Shown here: positions 1 to 16,014 of the stretch, one piece after another | Layout of the letters: every line of letters begins with the position of its first letter | How positions within the stretch are numbered: the stretch's first letter is position 1 | DNA from: a virus | Direction: 5' to 3' (one strand) | IMG/VR virus record: IMGVR_UViG_3300029286_003663 | Span: 1-22,980 of that record | Length of the DNA stretch: 22,980 nt | The notes under the pieces: model-generated | Told to the model about the DNA's origin: nothing | The model's input: only the letters and a program-made list of their open reading frames with translations | Database searches by the model: none | Position numbers and translations under genes: made by a program

Positions 1-1713
1 ATGGATTATAAATTTGAATTTGCAAAACTTTTAGAAGTTGCAATAGCAAAACCAGAATTTAATTCATTTAGAATTATTTCGCTAGTTGAAAGACCACCAG
101 AAAGAACAATGGGAGATTTATCTTTTCCAACCTTTTCATTATCTAAGCTATTCAAAAAAGCACCTATACAAATTTCAAACGAAATTATAGATAATTTAAA
201 TAAAATAGATTCATCAATTTTTGTATTTAATGCTGTTGCGGGATATGTTAATGCTACAATTAAACAAGAAATTTTATTTTATGAAACATTACATGAAGTA
301 ATAACTAAAGGAAAAGATTATGGACGTCTTGAACTTGATTCTAAACAATATGTTATTGATACATTTAATGCTAATCCATTAAAAGTACTGCATATTGGGC
401 ATTTAAGAAATATAGTTACTGGCGACTCCATTTATAGATTGCTTAAGTTCGTGGGAGCAGATCCAAGACCAGTTTCTTACGGTGGAGATATTGGAACTCA
501 TATAGCTAAGTGGTTATGGTATTATAATAAGTTGTCTATTAAAGAAAAAGAATTACCAAAAAAAGATGTATCTAAATGGTTTGGAAATATATATATAAAG
601 GCGGGCCTTGAACTCGAAAAGAATGAAGAAGTTTATAAAAAAGAGATTGATACTTTACAAGTTGAGATAATGAATAATATTTCTTTACAAAAAGAAATAA
701 AATTATTAGTCAATGAAAGCCAAGAAGCATATATGGCAATTGGTTGTGAGCTTGGGGTTTATTTAGATAATAGTTTTTTTGAATCGGATACTGAAAAAAA
801 ATTTCTGGAAATAAAAGATGAATTATTTGATAGTCATAAAGATCTCTTTATTGAAAGTCAAGGTGCAATTGTTGCAGACTTAAAAGATGAAGTGCTTGGG
901 AAATTTATATTAGTTAAACAAAATGGGGCTCCATTATATGGTGCAAAAGATATAGGGTTAGTTTTAGTTAAAAAGAAATCATATCCTGCTTGTGATAATT
1001 TTTTATACATTATTGCTTCTGAACAGGATTTTTATTTAAAACAATTATTTGCTCTTTTTAAGTTTATTTATCCTGGTACTAATCATTACCATATCAGTCA
1101 TGGTTTAATTAATAGTGTGGATGGAAAAATGAAATCAAGAGAAGGGAGCATTATTTTATATGAGGATTTTAGGGATGAACTATTTTCTCGTGTAAGGATG
1201 GTATTAGTTGAAAATGGGCTTGAAGTTGATGAGGAAATAGTTAAAGATATTTCTTTTGGAGTAATAAAGTTTGAAATGCTAAAAACAGGAGTTAATAAAA
1301 ATATTATTTTCGATTTGGATTCTGCTCTTGATTTGCAAGGGGATTCTTCTCCTTATCTTCAATATAGTGGAGTTAGAGCAAAAAGTATTTTAAGAAAAAC
1401 AAATTCAACTACAATTAAGATTGCAAAGAATATTGATACTTTAGAATTAACTTCTGAAGAAAAAGAGCTTTTATCTGAAATATCTATTTTTAAAGATAAA
1501 GTCCAAGAAGCATACAAGGATTTCAGACCAAACATTATTGCTACTTATTGCCTAAATCTTGCAAGAGTATTTAATAAGTTTTATGCAAATTGTCAGGTTC
1601 TTGATCCAAATCCAATAATTAAAAATAACCGTTTATTATTAACCAAGTGCTTTTTAATTACCTTAACAAATGCGCTTGCTCTTCTTGGGATTAATGTACC
1701 TGATAAAATGTAA
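1..1713 (+). CDS. argS: Arginyl-tRNA synthetase (class I)
   Basis: Charges tRNA-Arg with arginine in the cytoplasm. Seen: 570 residues, usual for ArgS. Residues 1-110 fit the N-terminal tRNA-recognition domain. The class I HIGH signature is exact at 131-134, in the context HIGHLRNIVTGD, followed by GGDIGTHIAKW. The KMSKS-like loop is present as KMKS at 376-379, followed by REG. A DALR-type anticodon-binding helical domain starts near SSPYLQYSGVRAKS around residue 450. The ATG is the first base of the window, so its promoter and ribosome binding site lie outside. It ends about 50 nt before an insertion sequence on the opposite strand. It is most simply a host housekeeping gene marking the chromosomal side of the junction with the viral module, though viral carriage cannot be excluded from this window alone. 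Confidence 0.96.
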   Translation: MDYKFEFAKLLEVAIAKPEFNSFRIISLVERPPERTMGDLSFPTFSLSKLFKKAPIQISNEIIDNLNKIDSSIFVFNAVAGYVNATIKQEILFYETLHEVITKGKDYGRLELDSKQYVIDTFNANPLKVLHIGHLRNIVTGDSIYRLLKFVGADPRPVSYGGDIGTHIAKWLWYYNKLSIKEKELPKKDVSKWFGNIYIKAGLELEKNEEVYKKEIDTLQVEIMNNISLQKEIKLLVNESQEAYMAIGCELGVYLDNSFFESDTEKKFLEIKDELFDSHKDLFIESQGAIVADLKDEVLGKFILVKQNGAPLYGAKDIGLVLVKKKSYPACDNFLYIIASEQDFYLKQLFALFKFIYPGTNHYHISHGLINSVDGKMKSREGSIILYEDFRDELFSRVRMVLVENGLEVDEEIVKDISFGVIKFEMLKTGVNKNIIFDLDSALDLQGDSSPYLQYSGVRAKSILRKTNSTTIKIAKNIDTLELTSEEKELLSEISIFKDKVQEAYKDFRPNIIATYCLNLARVFNKFYANCQVLDPNPIIKNNRLLLTKCFLITLTNALALLGINVPDKM

Positions 1714-2924: not shown

Positions 2925-4310
2925 ATGATTATTAAATTTAAAAGTGTTTCTGCATTAATAGCCACTATTCTTTTAATTGTTGTTGCTGTTGCATTAATTG
3001 CAATTATCTTAACCTGGGGTAAATCTTTTACAAATACAAACCTAACAAACACAAACGATTTACTAAATGCTCCAGCAAGTGATTCCCAATATTACTTAAC
3101 AATTGAAGATGGGCTAAACGGAAGATACTTAGTAAAATACAACCCCCCCATTTCTTTTTATAAAAGAAGTATAACTATAACAAGATATAGGCAACTTAGT
3201 AATAATAATATAATTGATTTAGCAACTCCAATTGACATTAACTCAGGAGATACAAAAGCACTTGATTTAGGAATAATCCATTCTCCTTTTGATCTAGTTT
3301 TATATTTAGATGATAACACCATAATAACAAAACAAAATATAAAAAACACAAACAGAAGCCCAAGAACAATTGATTGCCCCACAGGTTTTATTCCTGTACC
3401 TGGAAACTATCTATATAATACAGTTGAAGGAGATGGTGGCTTTTGTGTTGCTAAGTATGAAATGAAGATTGATGAAACAGGAGATGGAGTAGGGGACGTA
3501 AACGCCTCTTGTCAAAATACAACTTATGCAACCTGGAATAATGGTGCTGCAACTTGTGGTTATAATGCAGGAACTAGAACATTAGTTTCAAGTGCAAGCG
3601 GTTATCCACTTGCAACTATATCTCAAACTACATCAATAACTGCTTGTACAAGTATAGGTGGGCACTTAATAACCAACAATGAATGGATGACATTAGCTCG
3701 AAACATAGAACAAGTCCCAAGCAATTGGTCAAGCGGAGCAATAGGAACAGGTTACATTTATTCAGGACACAATGATGGAGGTCCAAATACAGCTTTAGCA
3801 GCAGACACAAACGATAATAATGGTTATTATTTAACTGTTCAAACAACTGGAAATCAAAGAAGAACATTAAGCTTAACAAACGGAGAAGTAATTTGGGATT
3901 TAGCAGGTAATGTTTGGGAATGGAATAATAATACTATTCAAAGAAAGGATCAACCTGATGGATTTAATAATGTAGATGATTCTGCAAATGCAGCTGGGTT
4001 TAATTGGTTTGATTATTCTAAAGCTAGTGGTGGAACTTATTATTTAAAAAGTAATAGTTTAGGAAATACAACTTTAGGATATAATGATTTGTTTTTATTA
4101 AGTTCAGGTAGTTATACTGCATCAATAAATGGAATAGGTAGAATATACACCTATAGTAATAGTGCGGATACAGATACAACAGAATATGGGTTCTTGCGCG
4201 GTGGCCGTTGGACCGACGGTACGTCTGCGGGGCTTTCGGCTTTGTACTTGTACCGCGTTCCAGGTTTCACGCACTACTACATCGGGTTTCGTTGCGTCGT
4301 AGTCCCTTGA
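2925..4310 (+). CDS. Pilin-anchored C-type-lectin/FGE-fold protein, likely DGR target (variable protein)
   Basis: Predicted surface-displayed ligand-binding protein. Seen: 461 residues. Residues 1-32 are an archaeal type IV pilin/class III signal-like N-terminus (basic KFK, then VSALIATILLIVV and a long hydrophobic helix). A linker is followed from C151 by a formylglycine-generating-enzyme/sulfatase-modifying-factor-type C-type lectin fold: CPTGFIPVPG, FCVAKYEMK, HLITNNEWM and GNVWEW (328-333). It ends in the DGR-target-type tail RGGRW (425-429)...AGLSAL...PGF...IGFRCV. Residues 423-461 are encoded by GC-rich DNA unlike the rest of the gene. Family knowledge: DGR targets in bacteria, DPANN archaea and archaeal viruses share this C-terminal fold. 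Inference: a membrane- or pilus-anchored adhesin diversified by retrohoming. It could belong to the host or to the virus, since it is co-oriented with the structural genes just downstream. Confidence 0.85.
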   Translation: MIIKFKSVSALIATILLIVVAVALIAIILTWGKSFTNTNLTNTNDLLNAPASDSQYYLTIEDGLNGRYLVKYNPPISFYKRSITITRYRQLSNNNIIDLATPIDINSGDTKALDLGIIHSPFDLVLYLDDNTIITKQNIKNTNRSPRTIDCPTGFIPVPGNYLYNTVEGDGGFCVAKYEMKIDETGDGVGDVNASCQNTTYATWNNGAATCGYNAGTRTLVSSASGYPLATISQTTSITACTSIGGHLITNNEWMTLARNIEQVPSNWSSGAIGTGYIYSGHNDGGPNTALAADTNDNNGYYLTVQTTGNQRRTLSLTNGEVIWDLAGNVWEWNNNTIQRKDQPDGFNNVDDSANAAGFNWFDYSKASGGTYYLKSNSLGNTTLGYNDLFLLSSGSYTASINGIGRIYTYSNSADTDTTEYGFLRGGRWTDGTSAGLSALYLYRVPGFTHYYIGFRCVVVP

Positions 4311-4406: not shown

Positions 4407-4934
4407 ATGACAAAAATATTTGAGTTTAACAAAGGACAATCAGGAACATTAATTTCTGAGCCAAGTAAATCTGTTGGTGCAATAACCGGTTCAGCTTCTT
4501 TTAAAGGATTAAGCAAGGGATATGGAATTGTATTGTCCAGTGGTAATTCAGTACAATGGACTATATCAAGCTCAACTATAACTAATCTTGTTTCTTTGGC
4601 TAGTGGAAATGGAACTTTAAGAATATCTTGTGGGGCAAACAATACAGACATAACTATTACTGGAGATGAATATAATAATAGTACAGTTAGTTTTTCAGGG
4701 ATTACTACAATTACAATAACTGCAACGTCTGGAACTGTGTATTTGTATAGCCTACAAGCATTCAATGTAGTTTCCACTTTAGATTTAATTAAAATTCAAG
4801 AACAATTCCTCCAAGCCTCACCAATTGAGAAAGAGATTAGAGGTTTTGAATGGGTTAAAGCAACAGACAGTTCACACGAAGAAGGACTCGTGGCACATTA
4901 TGTATTTAGTAAAGACACTGTGGTGAATGAATAA
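4407..4934 (+). CDS. LamG-type virion/adhesin protein, N-terminal fragment (split gene)
   Basis: N-terminal part of a beta-rich structural or adhesin protein. Residues 1-115 are Ser/Thr/Gly-rich with beta-strand patterning and no recognised family. Residues 150-175 (EEGLVAHYVFSKDTVV) match the first strand of a LamG/concanavalin-like domain, which normally continues with DLSGNGNHGTI. That continuation is found not here but at the start of the coding region at 5487, after an intervening HNH gene. The present reading frame ends two codons past the likely break (NE, stop). Joining base 4925 to base 5490 restores one frame of 486 codons. The start has an AGGT ribosome binding site 9-10 nt upstream. 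Role: probable tail fibre or receptor-binding decoration. The exact function is unknown. Confidence 0.72.
   Translation: MTKIFEFNKGQSGTLISEPSKSVGAITGSASFKGLSKGYGIVLSSGNSVQWTISSSTITNLVSLASGNGTLRISCGANNTDITITGDEYNNSTVSFSGITTITITATSGTVYLYSLQAFNVVSTLDLIKIQEQFLQASPIEKEIRGFEWVKATDSSHEEGLVAHYVFSKDTVVNE
4922..4926 (+). promoter_or_regulatory. Ribosome binding site for the inserted HNH gene
   Basis: GGTGA, 7 nt before the ATG at 4934, lies inside the last codons of the LamG N-fragment. The stop and start overlap as TAATG, so translation is probably coupled. Confidence 0.6.
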
Positions 4935-5497
4935 TGGATAAAAAATGTTTAAACTGCGGAATTGAATTAATTAAAAAACCTCATTGGTCTAATAATGCAT
5001 TCAATAATCAAAAGTATTGTTCAAGATTATGTAAGTCAGAATCAGAAAGAAATAGAATACATATAAAGTGTAGATTTTGTGGAAAAGATTTATATATTAA
5101 ACCCTCTGATGAAAAATTAGGTAGAGGTAATTATTGTTCCAGAGAATGCTTTTATAAAGAATATAGTCAGATTTGTAGAGGAGAAAACCATCATAATTGG
5201 AAAGGTGGTATGTATAGAGATGATAAAGGGTATTTGAGAATTAAGAAAGAAAATCATCCAAGAGCTTGTAGAGATGGTTATGTGATGGAACATATTTTAG
5301 TTGTTGAAGAAGTTTTAGAAAGATTTTTAAGAGATGATGAAACAATACATCATATAGATGGTAATAAAAGTAATAATTCTCCAGATAATTTATATTTATT
5401 TGAAACAAGTGGACTTCATACTGCTTTTCATCATTCTATTAGGCGAGGGGAAGAAATAATATTAGAAAGTAATTTAGGTGATTATAATGACAACTAA
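4934..5497 (+). CDS. HNH homing-type endonuclease interrupting the LamG gene
   Basis: Predicted site-specific endonuclease that would spread its own gene by double-strand-break repair. Seen: 187 residues. Two treble-clef/zinc-ribbon-like modules come first (C5, C8, C29, C33 and C46, C49, C68, C72). An HNH_3-type nuclease domain follows: VMEHILVVEEVL at 117-128, then IHHIDGNKSNNSPDNL at 138-153, with the H139/H140 pair and conserved Asn residues, as in phage endonucleases. Its start overlaps the stop of the upstream LamG fragment. Its last codons contain the ribosome binding site and start codon of the downstream LamG fragment. There is no room for a separate intron RNA, so a freestanding endonuclease insertion is favoured over a group I intron. 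Confidence 0.88.
   Translation: MDKKCLNCGIELIKKPHWSNNAFNNQKYCSRLCKSESERNRIHIKCRFCGKDLYIKPSDEKLGRGNYCSRECFYKEYSQICRGENHHNWKGGMYRDDKGYLRIKKENHPRACRDGYVMEHILVVEEVLERFLRDDETIHHIDGNKSNNSPDNLYLFETSGLHTAFHHSIRRGEEIILESNLGDYNDN
5476..5481 (+). promoter_or_regulatory. Ribosome binding site for the LamG C-fragment
   Basis: AGGTGA, 5 nt before ATG 5487. It sits within the 3' end of the HNH gene and favours ATG 5487 over the GTG at 5478. Confidence 0.6.
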
Positions 5498-6431
5498 ACT
5501 TTTAGATATATCGGGAAACCAAAATCACGGAACCATCTCTGGAGCTTTACAAACTAAAGATGGGCTACAATTCAATAATAGTGGGTCAAGTAAAAGCTAT
5601 GTATCATTGAACACAGAAGTAAATTCAGCATTAGAAACTTTACAGTTCGTTATTGATGTTCAAAGCACCGCAGTTTCTGGAACGTTTTATCAGCACTTCA
5701 CATTCAATACTCGTGGTTATAGGCTATCAATATGTAACTGTGGGATATTAAGAATGTCTACTTCACAAGGCGGTGGTATGACTATAACTGCACTTCAAGC
5801 AATAACAGTTGGAAAGCACACAATACAAATCGCAATAGATAACGCAAACTCGAAAGTCTATTCTACTCTTGATGGGGTAACTACTGAATATGCAATAACA
5901 CCATATGTAATTGGTTCAGCAGAAACAAGATATCTTGGAGATTATGGTGGTGGCAGTGCAAGTATAGCTGGAACTATAATTAACCATAGAAGATATAATA
6001 GATTATTGTCTTCACAAGAAGCAGTAAATTATCATAACAGTTTTATTAAGCCAGTATACATCAATTCTTTCGAGAATGATGCCACAGGTGCCACAAGTCC
6101 TAAAGGTTGGGGTAAGGGGACAGGGGTATATAAGATTGGGGAACTTTCAACAGCAATAACTTCTCCTAATTTACCCATCGGAACAAAAGTTTTAGAATGC
6201 ACCTCAAATGGAACAATTATTTTAAATGTTAATTTAGATGCGTATGTAAATAATGGGTATATTTCAATTGATAGATACACTGGTAGTAGTTGGACGCGAT
6301 ATTCTTCTAATGTTTCAAGTTTAAGTATTTCTGAAAGTTGGTTTGATTATAGTGATAAAAAAATAATCTTAACAGCAACTGCAACAGATAGATTTGCAAA
6401 TCTCAAGATTTATGATGGGATAAAGCAGTGA
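5487..6431 (+). CDS. LamG-type virion/adhesin protein, C-terminal fragment (split gene)
   Basis: Contains most of a LamG/concanavalin-like jelly-roll domain. It opens with TTKLLDISGNQNHGTISGA, the usual continuation of a first strand that here is encoded at the end of the 4407 gene. It then has typical beta strands (GLQFNNSGSSKSYVSL) and ends in NHRRYNRLLSSQEAVNYHN, characteristic of the end of LamG repeats. Residues from about 195 onward form a second beta-rich domain of unknown family. A GTG at 5478 is in frame, but ATG 5487 has AGGTGA 5 nt upstream and is preferred. It has no strand 1 of its own, so it probably associates non-covalently with the N-fragment or works as a shortened domain. 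Likely a virion adhesin. Confidence 0.75.
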   Translation: MTTKLLDISGNQNHGTISGALQTKDGLQFNNSGSSKSYVSLNTEVNSALETLQFVIDVQSTAVSGTFYQHFTFNTRGYRLSICNCGILRMSTSQGGGMTITALQAITVGKHTIQIAIDNANSKVYSTLDGVTTEYAITPYVIGSAETRYLGDYGGGSASIAGTIINHRRYNRLLSSQEAVNYHNSFIKPVYINSFENDATGATSPKGWGKGTGVYKIGELSTAITSPNLPIGTKVLECTSNGTIILNVNLDAYVNNGYISIDRYTGSSWTRYSSNVSSLSISESWFDYSDKKIILTATATDRFANLKIYDGIKQ

Positions 6432-13176: not shown

Positions 13177-13653
13177 ATGGAAATATTTATTGACTGGGGA
13201 TTATGCTTTGATGCAATGAGATTAGAATTAGTTGAACAATTAAAAATCAGATGTCCTGCTCACGATGGAGCTTTGAGAAATAGCATAAGCGCGGCAGTAG
13301 AAGACGGAAGATTGAACATTTGGATGCTCAACTATGCCATGTATGTTGAAGAAGGTTGTTTTTTTGGAAATACACATAGAACAAGAGTATTAACTAAAAG
13401 AGGATACAAGCAACTAAAGGATGTAAAAGTAGGAGATGAAGTATTAACCCATAATAATAAATGGAGGAAAGTAATTGAAAAACCAATTTACCCTGTAAAT
13501 AGAAAAATACCCAGATACACCATAATTACAGAAAGTGGAAAGAAAGTTACTGTTACAGAAGAACACCCATTTAGAGTAAAAACAGAAAATGGATATATTT
13601 GGAAAAAAGCAAAAGAATTAACCACTAAAGATATTATTCAAGAGGTTGATTAA
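13177..13653 (+). CDS. gp10-like neck protein N-extein fused to N-intein (split-intein gene, part 1)
   Basis: Residues 1-60 are the first half of an HK97 gp10-family neck/tail-completion protein: DGALRNSISAAVEDG (30-44) and YAMYVEEG (53-60), the conserved YVExG turn. From Cys61 (13357) the sequence switches to an intein N-terminal half. Block A starts at Cys61 with FFGNTHRTRVLT, followed by VGDEVL, and block B is TVTEEHPF with T127 and H130 of the TxxH motif. The frame stops (TAA 13651-13653) after 98 intein residues. The missing C-intein and C-extein follow in the next gene. Inference: this product is one partner of a trans-splicing pair. Its last codons double as the ribosome binding site of that partner. 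Confidence 0.85.
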   Translation: MEIFIDWGLCFDAMRLELVEQLKIRCPAHDGALRNSISAAVEDGRLNIWMLNYAMYVEEGCFFGNTHRTRVLTKRGYKQLKDVKVGDEVLTHNNKWRKVIEKPIYPVNRKIPRYTIITESGKKVTVTEEHPFRVKTENGYIWKKAKELTTKDIIQEVD

Positions 13654-14409
13654 ATGGGAAATAAAAAAGGATGTATTACTTGGAATAAAGGAAAAGATGA
13701 CAGAATAATAGTTAAATGTAATTATTGTGGTAAGGCAGTAAAGATACATAAATGCAGGCTAAAATATTCAAAAAGATTTTATTGCAATGTAGAATGTAGG
13801 CATAAAGATTGGGTAGGTAAAAACAATCCAATGTGTGGCAAACACCAAAGTGAGTTGAGTAAAAGTATTCGCTCAGAAATGAGTAAAAAGAATAAAGGCA
13901 AATTTAATCCAATGTTTAATAAAAAAATAGATAGTTCAGGTTGTAATTTTTATATAGATGACTTAGGGCATAGATGTAGAAGCAGTTGGGAAATAAATAT
14001 AGGAAGAATATTAAAGTATTTACATATAAATTATGAATATGAAAAAGAAACATTTAATTTAAATAAAGGAGATAGTTACACACCTGACTTTTATTTAAGT
14101 GAGTTAGATTTATACTTAGAAGTTAAAGGATATGAAACCGAAAAGTTTAAAGCAAAATTTATTAGATTTAAAAAAGAATACCCAAAAATAAATATATTAT
14201 TAATAAATCAAGAAATATATAAATTGCTAAAACCAATATATGAAAATAAAATTAACTGGGAATATGAAGGCAAAATAAAAGCAAACTTCACATTTAAGGA
14301 TGTAAAAATAAAGCAAATAAAAAAAACAATGTATAAACCTAAAAGAGTTTTTAATCTAAGTGTAGATGAGGATAATAGTTTTGTGGTAAATGGATTGGTG
14401 GTTCATAAT
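13357..14409 (+). mobile_element. Split intein with nested homing endonuclease
   Basis: Runs from Cys1 to the terminal His-Asn: 98 codons of N-intein, a TAA stop abutting an in-frame ATG, then 252 codons of endonuclease plus C-intein. Removing it joins VEEG to TAPHW and gives a 140-residue gp10-like protein, the normal family size. The intein footprint, nuclease residues and ribosome binding site are all intact, so it looks functional rather than decayed. Confidence 0.85.
13642..13646 (+). promoter_or_regulatory. Ribosome binding site for the endonuclease/C-intein polypeptide
   Basis: GAGGT, 7 nt before ATG 13654, lies inside the last codons of the N-intein gene. It is one of the better ribosome binding sites in this operon. 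It supports genuine re-initiation at TAA-ATG rather than a chance stop mutation. Confidence 0.65.
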
Positions 14410-14652
14410 ACAGCTCCTCACTGGACAAGTGTAGAAAACCTAAAGAAATGGGCAAAGGATAAATTAGGAGATGAGAACTTGGCTTATGCCTTGCAGAAGA
14501 GCATTGCAGTAAAAGGAACAAAGCCGCACCCGTTTATTAAAGAAACATTAATACAAGAGTTTCCAAGATTATTAGCAAAAGGACTGAGCCACAAAGGTGT
14601 GGTTTGTGCCTTAATTGATGGAACTAAATACGAGACAAGAAAATTAGAATAA
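13654..14652 (+). CDS. PD-(D/E)XK homing endonuclease + C-intein + gp10 C-extein (split-intein gene, part 2)
   Basis: 332 residues in four parts. Residues 1-50: a WNKGK motif and a zinc ribbon (C22, C25, C44, C48). Residues 55-91: two NUMOD3-like DNA-contact repeats (GKNNPMCGKH, GKFNPMFNKK). Residues 105-205: a PD-(D/E)XK nuclease core with E113 (SSWEINIGRIL), D145 (YTPDFYL), E156 and K158 (LYLEVKGY). Residues about 207-252: a C-intein, with block F RVFNLSVDEDNSFVVNG and block G LVVHN, His251-Asn252. Thr253 is the +1 nucleophile of the C-extein (253-332), whose APHWTSVENLKKWAKDKLGD and GTKPHPFIKETL are typical gp10-family C-terminal sequence. The frame is the same as that of the upstream gene, and ATG directly follows its TAA. 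Inference: trans-splices with part 1, while the nuclease promotes homing. Confidence 0.85.
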   Translation: MGNKKGCITWNKGKDDRIIVKCNYCGKAVKIHKCRLKYSKRFYCNVECRHKDWVGKNNPMCGKHQSELSKSIRSEMSKKNKGKFNPMFNKKIDSSGCNFYIDDLGHRCRSSWEINIGRILKYLHINYEYEKETFNLNKGDSYTPDFYLSELDLYLEVKGYETEKFKAKFIRFKKEYPKINILLINQEIYKLLKPIYENKINWEYEGKIKANFTFKDVKIKQIKKTMYKPKRVFNLSVDEDNSFVVNGLVVHNTAPHWTSVENLKKWAKDKLGDENLAYALQKSIAVKGTKPHPFIKETLIQEFPRLLAKGLSHKGVVCALIDGTKYETRKLE

Positions 14653-15363: not shown

Positions 15364-16014
15364 ATGCCTGCTCCAAAAGACCAAATTAAATATGTTGAGT
15401 GGGTTAAAAAATTAAGTAATTCTAAAAAAGGAATTAAACCCAAAAACCTAATAAATATATGTGGTTGGAATAAGGGATTAAAAGGGGTTATAAAACCAAA
15501 CAAAACATCTTTTAAAAAAGGGCAAATCCCACATAACTTTGGCACTGCTAAAAAAAGAGTGTGTAAAGTTTGCGGGAAAGAGTTTAGGGTAAGTAAAAGT
15601 AAAGTTTATTGTAGTTGGAATTGTTATTTAAAAGATGAACACAAAAACAACCAAGTAAATAAAATTACATCTGAAGAAACGAGAATAAAACAAAGCTGTA
15701 TAAAACGAGGGATTGATACAAAATACTTTGATAAGTTTCTTAGACCTTTAAACAAACAAATACGTAATCTGAATGAATATAAGGATTGGAGATATAAAGT
15801 GTTTAAGAGAGATAACTTTACTTGTCAACATTGTGGTAATAATAAATGTTATTTAGAAGCACATCATTTAGATAGATTATCAGATATAATTATCGAAAAT
15901 AATATTAATTCCATATACGATGCAAAAGATTGCGTTAACTTATGGAATATAAATATAGGCATTACATTATGTAGGGATTGCCATAAAAAAATACATTTGG
16001 AGGAATTAAAATGA
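15364..16014 (+). CDS. HNH homing-type endonuclease between tail terminator and tail tube
   Basis: 216 residues. The N-terminus carries NUMOD-like motifs (GWNKGLKG at 34-41, FKKGQIPHNFG at 50-60). A zinc ribbon follows (C67, C70, C83, C87). The canonical HNH domain begins WRYKVFKRDNFTCQHCG (142-158), continues LEAHHLD with H167/H168, and ends NIGITLCRDCHKKIH with C203, C206, H207 and H211. All catalytic and metal positions are present. It is inserted between genes, and its 3' end supplies TTGGAGGAATTAAAATGA, the ribosome binding site and overlapping start of the tail tube gene. Strong SD AAGGAGAT precedes its own start. It is probably a mobile freestanding nuclease, not a virion protein. Confidence 0.92.
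   Translation: MPAPKDQIKYVEWVKKLSNSKKGIKPKNLINICGWNKGLKGVIKPNKTSFKKGQIPHNFGTAKKRVCKVCGKEFRVSKSKVYCSWNCYLKDEHKNNQVNKITSEETRIKQSCIKRGIDTKYFDKFLRPLNKQIRNLNEYKDWRYKVFKRDNFTCQHCGNNKCYLEAHHLDRLSDIIIENNINSIYDAKDCVNLWNINIGITLCRDCHKKIHLEELK

What the first reader, a model, noticed from the sequence alone, without database searches (positions are those of the whole stretch)
13177..14652. Stop-start split intein in a viral gp10-like neck protein gene
Seen: intein N-half from Cys61 (blocks A and B with TxxH), then TAA immediately followed by in-frame ATG, then endonuclease and C-half ending His-Asn before Thr. The exteins join as VEEG|TAPHW, giving a 140-residue gp10-family protein of normal size. GAGGT lies 7 nt before the ATG. 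Known: split inteins with a nuclease gene between the halves (fractured genes) are described from phage-rich metagenomes, usually with separate nuclease genes. Here the nuclease is fused to the C-intein and the split is a single stop codon with re-initiation. Inference: an intermediate between a contiguous and a fully split intein, and essential virion assembly would depend on trans-splicing.
Basis: partly seen in the sequence, partly recalled or inferred. Interest (0 to 1): 0.92.

Follow-up and report, generated by a model that had tools for sequence, protein, structure and literature searches.

The report
Split intein with nuclease-fused second half
A virus, probably of a tiny archaeon, carries its head-tail connector protein as two separate genes that a self-splicing protein element should stitch back together, and the element's DNA-cutting enzyme is built into the second gene; the same layout in two other, quite different viruses shows it is real, mobile and not a sequencing error.

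Summary
Window 13177-13653 encodes 60 aa of a Neck1/gp10-type protein plus a 98-aa N-intein. TAA is followed directly by ATG, and 13654-14652 encodes a zinc-finger/NUMOD3-like region, a phage-endonuclease-I-like PD-(D/E)xK nuclease, a C-intein ending His-Asn, and 80 aa of C-extein. Intein models match each half, and the joined exteins hit Neck1 (1.5e-7). About 50 intein-free relatives read straight through the same YVE(E/F)G|T motif. Two other viral contigs (L002, L004) carry the same split element at the same site, with the second ORF in the -1 and +1 frame and a GAGGT ribosome-binding site kept before its ATG. So the stop is not a sequencing error, and read-through cannot explain the set. 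L002 and L004 exteins are 22% identical while their intein parts are 57-61% identical, so the split unit moved as one piece. Best reading: a mobile, trans-splicing split intein, a variant of 'fractured genes' with the nuclease fused to the C-intein rather than free-standing, here in a virion-assembly gene. Whether it is an evolutionary 'intermediate' is unproven. Splicing and homing are inferred, not shown.

The parts
13177..13356 (+). N-extein: first 60 residues of the Neck1/gp10-type (head-tail connector) protein, ending ..MYVEEG
   Evidence: joined exteins hit phrog_5 1.5e-7; intein-free homologue L001 71-72% identical
13357..13650 (+). N-intein, 98 aa: Cys1, block A, block B TEEH, ends after block N4 (..KELTTKDIIQEVD)
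   Evidence: PF14890 22-92, TIGR01445; 59-63% identical to the N-inteins of L002 and L004; weak Hint/gp41-1 intein matches
13642..13646 (+). GAGGT Shine-Dalgarno site of the second ORF, inside the end of the N-intein
   Evidence: kept in L002 and L004; 43% of genes here have an SD match of 5 nt or more against 4.7% of other ATGs
13651..13656 (+). split point: TAA stop directly followed by ATG
   Evidence: replaced by an ATGA overlap in L002 and TGA-T-ATG in L004
13654..13926 (+). N-terminal part of ORF2: CxxC..CxxxC zinc-finger-like segment and two NUMOD3-like GKxNPM motifs (probable DNA-binding part)
   Evidence: NUMOD3 sub-threshold in the window (0.0024), above cut-off in L002 and L004
13966..14238 (+). 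phage-endonuclease-I-like PD-(D/E)xK nuclease domain; E113, D145, E156, K158 of ORF2
   Evidence: phrog_9019 3e-18; Phage_endo_I in L004 5e-4, below cut-off; weak match to T7 endonuclease I 1m0d; catalytic residues invariant in three copies
14278..14409 (+). C-intein, about 44 aa: block F VFNLSVDEDNSFVVNG, block G LVVHN
   Evidence: TIGR01443 1e-5 above cut-off; PF14890 79-155; 50-64% identical to L004 and L002
14410..14649 (+). C-extein: last 80 residues of the Neck1/gp10-type protein, starting T(+1)APHW
   Evidence: 82% identical to L001 in this part; uninterrupted in about 50 relatives

Best explanation
The locus is a naturally split, mobile class-1 intein in the gene of a Neck1/gp10-type virion protein. 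Two proteins are made from adjoining ORFs: N-extein plus N-intein, then, by initiation at the GAGGT...ATG site (probably coupled to termination upstream), nuclease plus C-intein plus C-extein. The two intein halves fold together as one Hint domain and splice in trans, joining VEEG to TAPHW into an uninterrupted 140-residue connector protein. This leaves the 98-aa N-intein and a 252-aa nuclease-C-intein. The nuclease is the homing enzyme: it would cut the intein-free neck gene of a co-infecting virus at or near the G|T site, so that repair copies both ORF halves into it as one unit. Shown: anatomy, split conserved in three viruses and three frame relations, conserved catalytic residues, conserved ribosome-binding site, empty sites in relatives, discordant intein and extein divergence. 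Inferred: trans-splicing, cutting, homing, need for splicing in virion assembly.
For: Intein half-models on each ORF. Exteins join into one Neck1 protein at E 1.5e-7 while single halves barely score. Intein-free allele L001, 72% identical, with the same synteny. About 50 of 80 relatives in IMG/VR show the motif YVE(E/F)G|T(A/R)PH(W/M) uninterrupted, and no further intein halves occur among them; an intein-free copy lies in an Iainarchaeota genome. Same split element at the same site in L002 and L004, with the second ORF in frame 0 (window), -1 (L002) and +1 (L004). GAGGT kept in all three although the intein's Glu codons are nearly all GAA (GAG 4 of 25, 3 of 25, 2 of 16). L002-L004 exteins 22% identical but N-intein 61% and nuclease plus C-intein 57%. 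C1, TxxH, HN and +1 Thr/Ser, and nuclease E..D..ExK, all kept.
Against: No splicing or cleavage data. The structure model of the read-through intein has low confidence (mean pLDDT 49, pTM 0.28), although its matches are Hint and intein structures. Block F Asp is Asn in two of three copies and the F-block His is absent. Only three copies were found, and the collection scans match by short patterns, so the breadth is poorly known.
Confidence: 0.85

Rival explanations
1. An ordinary contiguous intein; the TAA is a sequencing error, a recent nonsense mutation, or is read through.
For: In the window the two ORFs share a frame, so one codon separates them from a continuous precursor.
Against: L002 and L004 carry the same split with ORF2 in the -1 and +1 frame, which no single error or stop read-through explains; a ribosome-binding site is kept at the break; TAA followed by A is not a leaky context (general knowledge).
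Confidence: 0.04
2. Gene in pieces without splicing: the intein is dead or irrelevant and the two connector halves work as separate chains, as reported for a phage ribonucleotide reductase split by a nuclease gene.
For: Such split proteins exist (Friedrich et al. 2007, cited in PMC10448857), and this same window has a LamG-type gene that looks broken by an HNH gene with no intein.
Against: All splicing residues are kept in three copies that have diverged to 50-63% identity, including a switch of +1 Thr to Ser, another nucleophile; the Hint halves are as well conserved as the nuclease.
Confidence: 0.08
3. The element splices but no longer homes: the nuclease is vestigial or serves another role, such as junction resolution.
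For: Its nearest named families are Holliday-junction resolvases and phage endonuclease I; no cleavage site is known.
Against: Catalytic residues are intact in all copies, NUMOD3-type motifs are typical of homing enzymes, and intein and extein divergence are discordant.
Confidence: 0.2

Closest known systems
Fractured genes with split inteins (Dassa et al. 2009, NAR 37:2560; full text not held, so described from memory and citing papers)
   Same: A conserved phage-type gene broken in two by a split intein, split at the usual endonuclease site, with a nuclease between the halves
   Different: There a free-standing nuclease gene, many Vsr-like (EDxHD), in DNA-metabolism genes; here the nuclease is the N-terminal part of the C-intein protein, is phage-endonuclease-I-like, and the host gene is a virion connector
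AceL NrdHF split intein (PMC7891396)
   Same: 98-aa N-intein, short C-intein, phage-like contig, intervening nuclease
   Different: Class 3 intein (no Cys1), 48-aa C-intein, separate GIY-YIG nuclease gene, ribonucleotide reductase
Pseudomonas phage MIJ3 PolB split intein (PMC6892783)
   Same: Phage gene split around a nuclease, intein blocks on both sides
   Different: Separate HNH gene (orf154) between orfs 153 and 155; DNA polymerase
gp41-1 and Aes123 PolB1 natural split inteins
   Same: Typical split position (about 100 + 40 aa); gp41-1 is the best solved-structure sequence match of the N-half (3.7e-4)
   Different: The lab-used C-inteins carry no nuclease; other host genes
Contiguous inteins with a homing endonuclease (LAGLIDADG-type inteins of DPANN SufB, aRF1 and DNA ligase seen)
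   Same: Same order: N-intein, nuclease, C-intein; related Hint domain
   Different: One reading frame, other nuclease family, cellular genes

Membership tests
Class 1 intein (Hint splicing domain) | Cys/Ser at position 1, block B TxxH, C-terminal His-Asn, +1 Cys/Ser/Thr | tested here: met
   C1, TEEH/TDNH, HN, +1 T/T/S in the three copies; intein models
Naturally split intein | Halves encoded by separate ORFs at the canonical site, in more than one genome | tested here: met
   three loci, three frame relations, RBS kept
Naturally split intein | Protein trans-splicing activity | not testable with these tools
   needs co-expression
Fractured gene (Dassa et al. 2009) | Free-standing endonuclease gene between the intein halves | tested here: not met
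   nuclease and C-intein are one ORF in all three copies
Fractured gene (Dassa et al. 2009) | Conserved gene broken by a split intein, with intein-free alleles | tested here: met
   L001, L025 and about 50 uninterrupted relatives
Vsr-like/EDxHD homing endonuclease | Nuclease of the Vsr-like family | tested here: not met
   best matches are phrog_9019, Phage_endo_I and T7 endonuclease I; no Vsr match
Phage endonuclease I-like PD-(D/E)xK nuclease | E..D..ExK active site and profile match | tested here: met
   residues invariant; phrog_9019 3e-18; Pfam Phage_endo_I only 5e-4 in L004, below cut-off
Homing endonuclease | Cuts the intein-free allele | not testable with these tools
   only indirect: intein-extein discordance
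HK97 gp10 / Neck1 (phrog_5) | Profile match of the joined exteins and position among head-tail connector genes | tested here: met
   1.5e-7, L025 above Pfam cut-off for HK97-gp10_like; neighbours are head-tail adaptors

The most novel reading that the evidence does not exclude
A stable, separately inherited class of split intein in which the homing nuclease is the front part of the C-intein protein. Translation of the second ORF from its own ribosome-binding site makes nuclease independently of the first half, and trans-splicing both releases the nuclease and completes a virion connector; the split unit spreads as one piece among archaeal viruses.
Probability: 0.5. Interest if true: 0.72.

Novelty: new variant of a known kind. 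Interest (0 to 1): 0.62.

Why it matters
How contiguous inteins become split, and how nuclease genes come to sit between the halves, is an open question. This element has an organisation not described in the papers read here: split, yet with the nuclease still covalently part of the C-half. It is seen in three viruses with three different junctions, so the split can be studied as a maintained state and not as damage. It also puts a split intein into a virion-assembly protein of a probable DPANN-archaeal virus, and offers a split intein with a built-in nuclease for protein engineering.

Tried and rejected
Sequencing error or simple nonsense mutation: rejected, since L002 and L004 have the break in other frames. 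RNA intron: no Rfam match in the window, and the intein motifs explain the insert. Vsr-like nuclease (my own first guess): the profile matches point to phage endonuclease I instead. Contiguous inteins with the same nuclease: none seen in 87 genomes of the phylum of Ca. Forterrea or 156 of the phylum of an Aenigmatarchaeota genome; the hits there that I read were LAGLIDADG-type inteins in SufB, aRF1 and DNA ligase, or an unrelated nuclease. Annotated phages: nuclease-only matches, no N-half match; the haloviral one sits beside thymidylate synthase with no intein annotated. Genome collection scan with ORF2: nothing. Nuclease-only viral scan: the same two loci. L003 is a short, unrelated match. 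AlphaFold of the read-through intein: too poor to argue from. My first genome search used an arbitrary pattern and means nothing.

Full report
Observation. Half-models of inteins match each ORF (Pfam Intein_splicing 22-92 in ORF1 and 79-155 in ORF2; TIGR01445 and TIGR01443). The joined exteins match the Neck1/tail-completion family phrog_5 at 1.5e-7, while the N-extein alone gives 0.094 and the C-extein alone no phrog_5 match. The gene lies among portal, minor head, protease, major capsid and head-tail adaptor genes.

Relatives without the intein. L001 (IMG/VR) has the same genes in the same order with an uninterrupted neck protein, 71-72% identical to the joined exteins. A scan with an alignment of four family members gave 80 loci. 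In about 50 of them the motif YVE(E/F)G-T(A/R)PH(W/M) is read straight through, and no intein half was found in any locus other than the already known L004 contig. An intein-free copy (FVEFG-TEPHMPP) lies in a genome of the phylum of Ca. Forterrea, Iainarchaeota. The intein sits exactly between G and T of a strongly conserved motif of the family, as expected of an intein.

Relatives with the intein. L002 (IMGVR_UViG_3300029286_002828) and L004 (IMGVR_UViG_3300008255_000631) carry the same element at the same site, also split after block N4, also with the nuclease fused to the C-intein. The junctions differ: TAA|ATG in frame in the window, an ATGA overlap in the -1 frame in L002, TGA-T-ATG in the +1 frame in L004. 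One error, read-through or one frameshift cannot produce all three, whereas initiation at a new ATG fits all. The GAGGT before that ATG is kept in all three, although Glu in these inteins is GAG in only 4 of 25, 3 of 25 and 2 of 16 codons, and Shine-Dalgarno use is real in this virus (matches of 5 nt or more before 43% of genes against 4.7% of other ATGs).

Mobility. Between L002 and L004 the exteins are 22% identical but the N-inteins 61% and the nuclease-C-intein parts 57%. The window's closest extein is intein-free L001. So the split unit moved between diverged viruses as one piece. The nuclease keeps an E..D..ExK active site in all copies. Its best matches are phage endonuclease I / Holliday-junction resolvase families (phrog_9019 3e-18; Phage_endo_I 5e-4 in L004, sub-threshold; T7 endonuclease I weakly), with NUMOD3 motifs above cut-off in L002 and L004. 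It is therefore not the Vsr-like family tied to the original fractured genes (known to me from memory, and from PMC12350094).

Mechanism. Two precursors are made, the second from its own ribosome-binding site. The Hint halves associate and splice in trans; the products are the connector protein, the N-intein and a nuclease-C-intein. The nuclease would then open intein-free neck genes of co-infecting relatives. Splicing, cutting and homing are inferences. The read-through model from AlphaFold is poor (pLDDT 49) and adds only that its matches are Hint and intein structures.

Host. The arginyl-tRNA synthetase at the left end is 62% identical to that of Ca. Forterrea multitransposorum (Iainarchaeota, DPANN), next to an IS630-like transposase. 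A DPANN-archaeal virus or provirus is likely but not proven.

Comparison. Described natural split inteins in phages have a separate nuclease gene between the halves (AceL NrdHF, PMC7891396; MIJ3 PolB, PMC6892783; Dassa et al. 2009, from memory, text not held). The element fails the free-standing-nuclease criterion and differs in nuclease family and host gene. It works like a fractured gene but is a variant. No paper in the library joined 'archaeal virus' and 'split intein'. Whether it is a step from contiguous to fully split, or a fusion of a free nuclease to the C-intein, cannot be told from three copies.

Noticed in passing
window 4407-6431: A LamG-type structural gene looks broken by an HNH gene (4934-5497): the first part ends GLVAHYVFSKDTVVNE, the next part starts MTTKLLDISGNQNHGT; no intein motifs and no Rfam intron. 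Possibly a gene in pieces without splicing, in the same virus.
   Followed up: partly
window 15364-16014: A free-standing gene with weak HNH matches sits between two genes that are adjacent in L001 (4690 to 4708) and in L004 (7644 to 7657), so it looks like an insertion in this lineage.
   Followed up: partly
window 1-1713 and 1769-2822: Arginyl-tRNA synthetase (62% to Ca. Forterrea multitransposorum) next to an IS630-like transposase in two overlapping frames: host flank of a provirus, or carried genes.
   Followed up: partly
window 2925-4310: Protein with a pilin/flagellin-like start (VSALIATILLIVVAVALIAIILTWG) and an FGE-sulfatase-type domain (3.3e-6).
   Followed up: no
window 13177-13356 and 14410-14649 against L001: The C-extein DNA is 83% identical to L001 (about 91% over the first 150 nt) but the N-extein only 63%; co-conversion during homing or uneven constraint could explain it.
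   Followed up: partly
phrog_36001 (715-position profile): Matches the N-half at positions 99-184 and the C-half at 436-482, so it may hold a contiguous intein related to this one.
   Followed up: no
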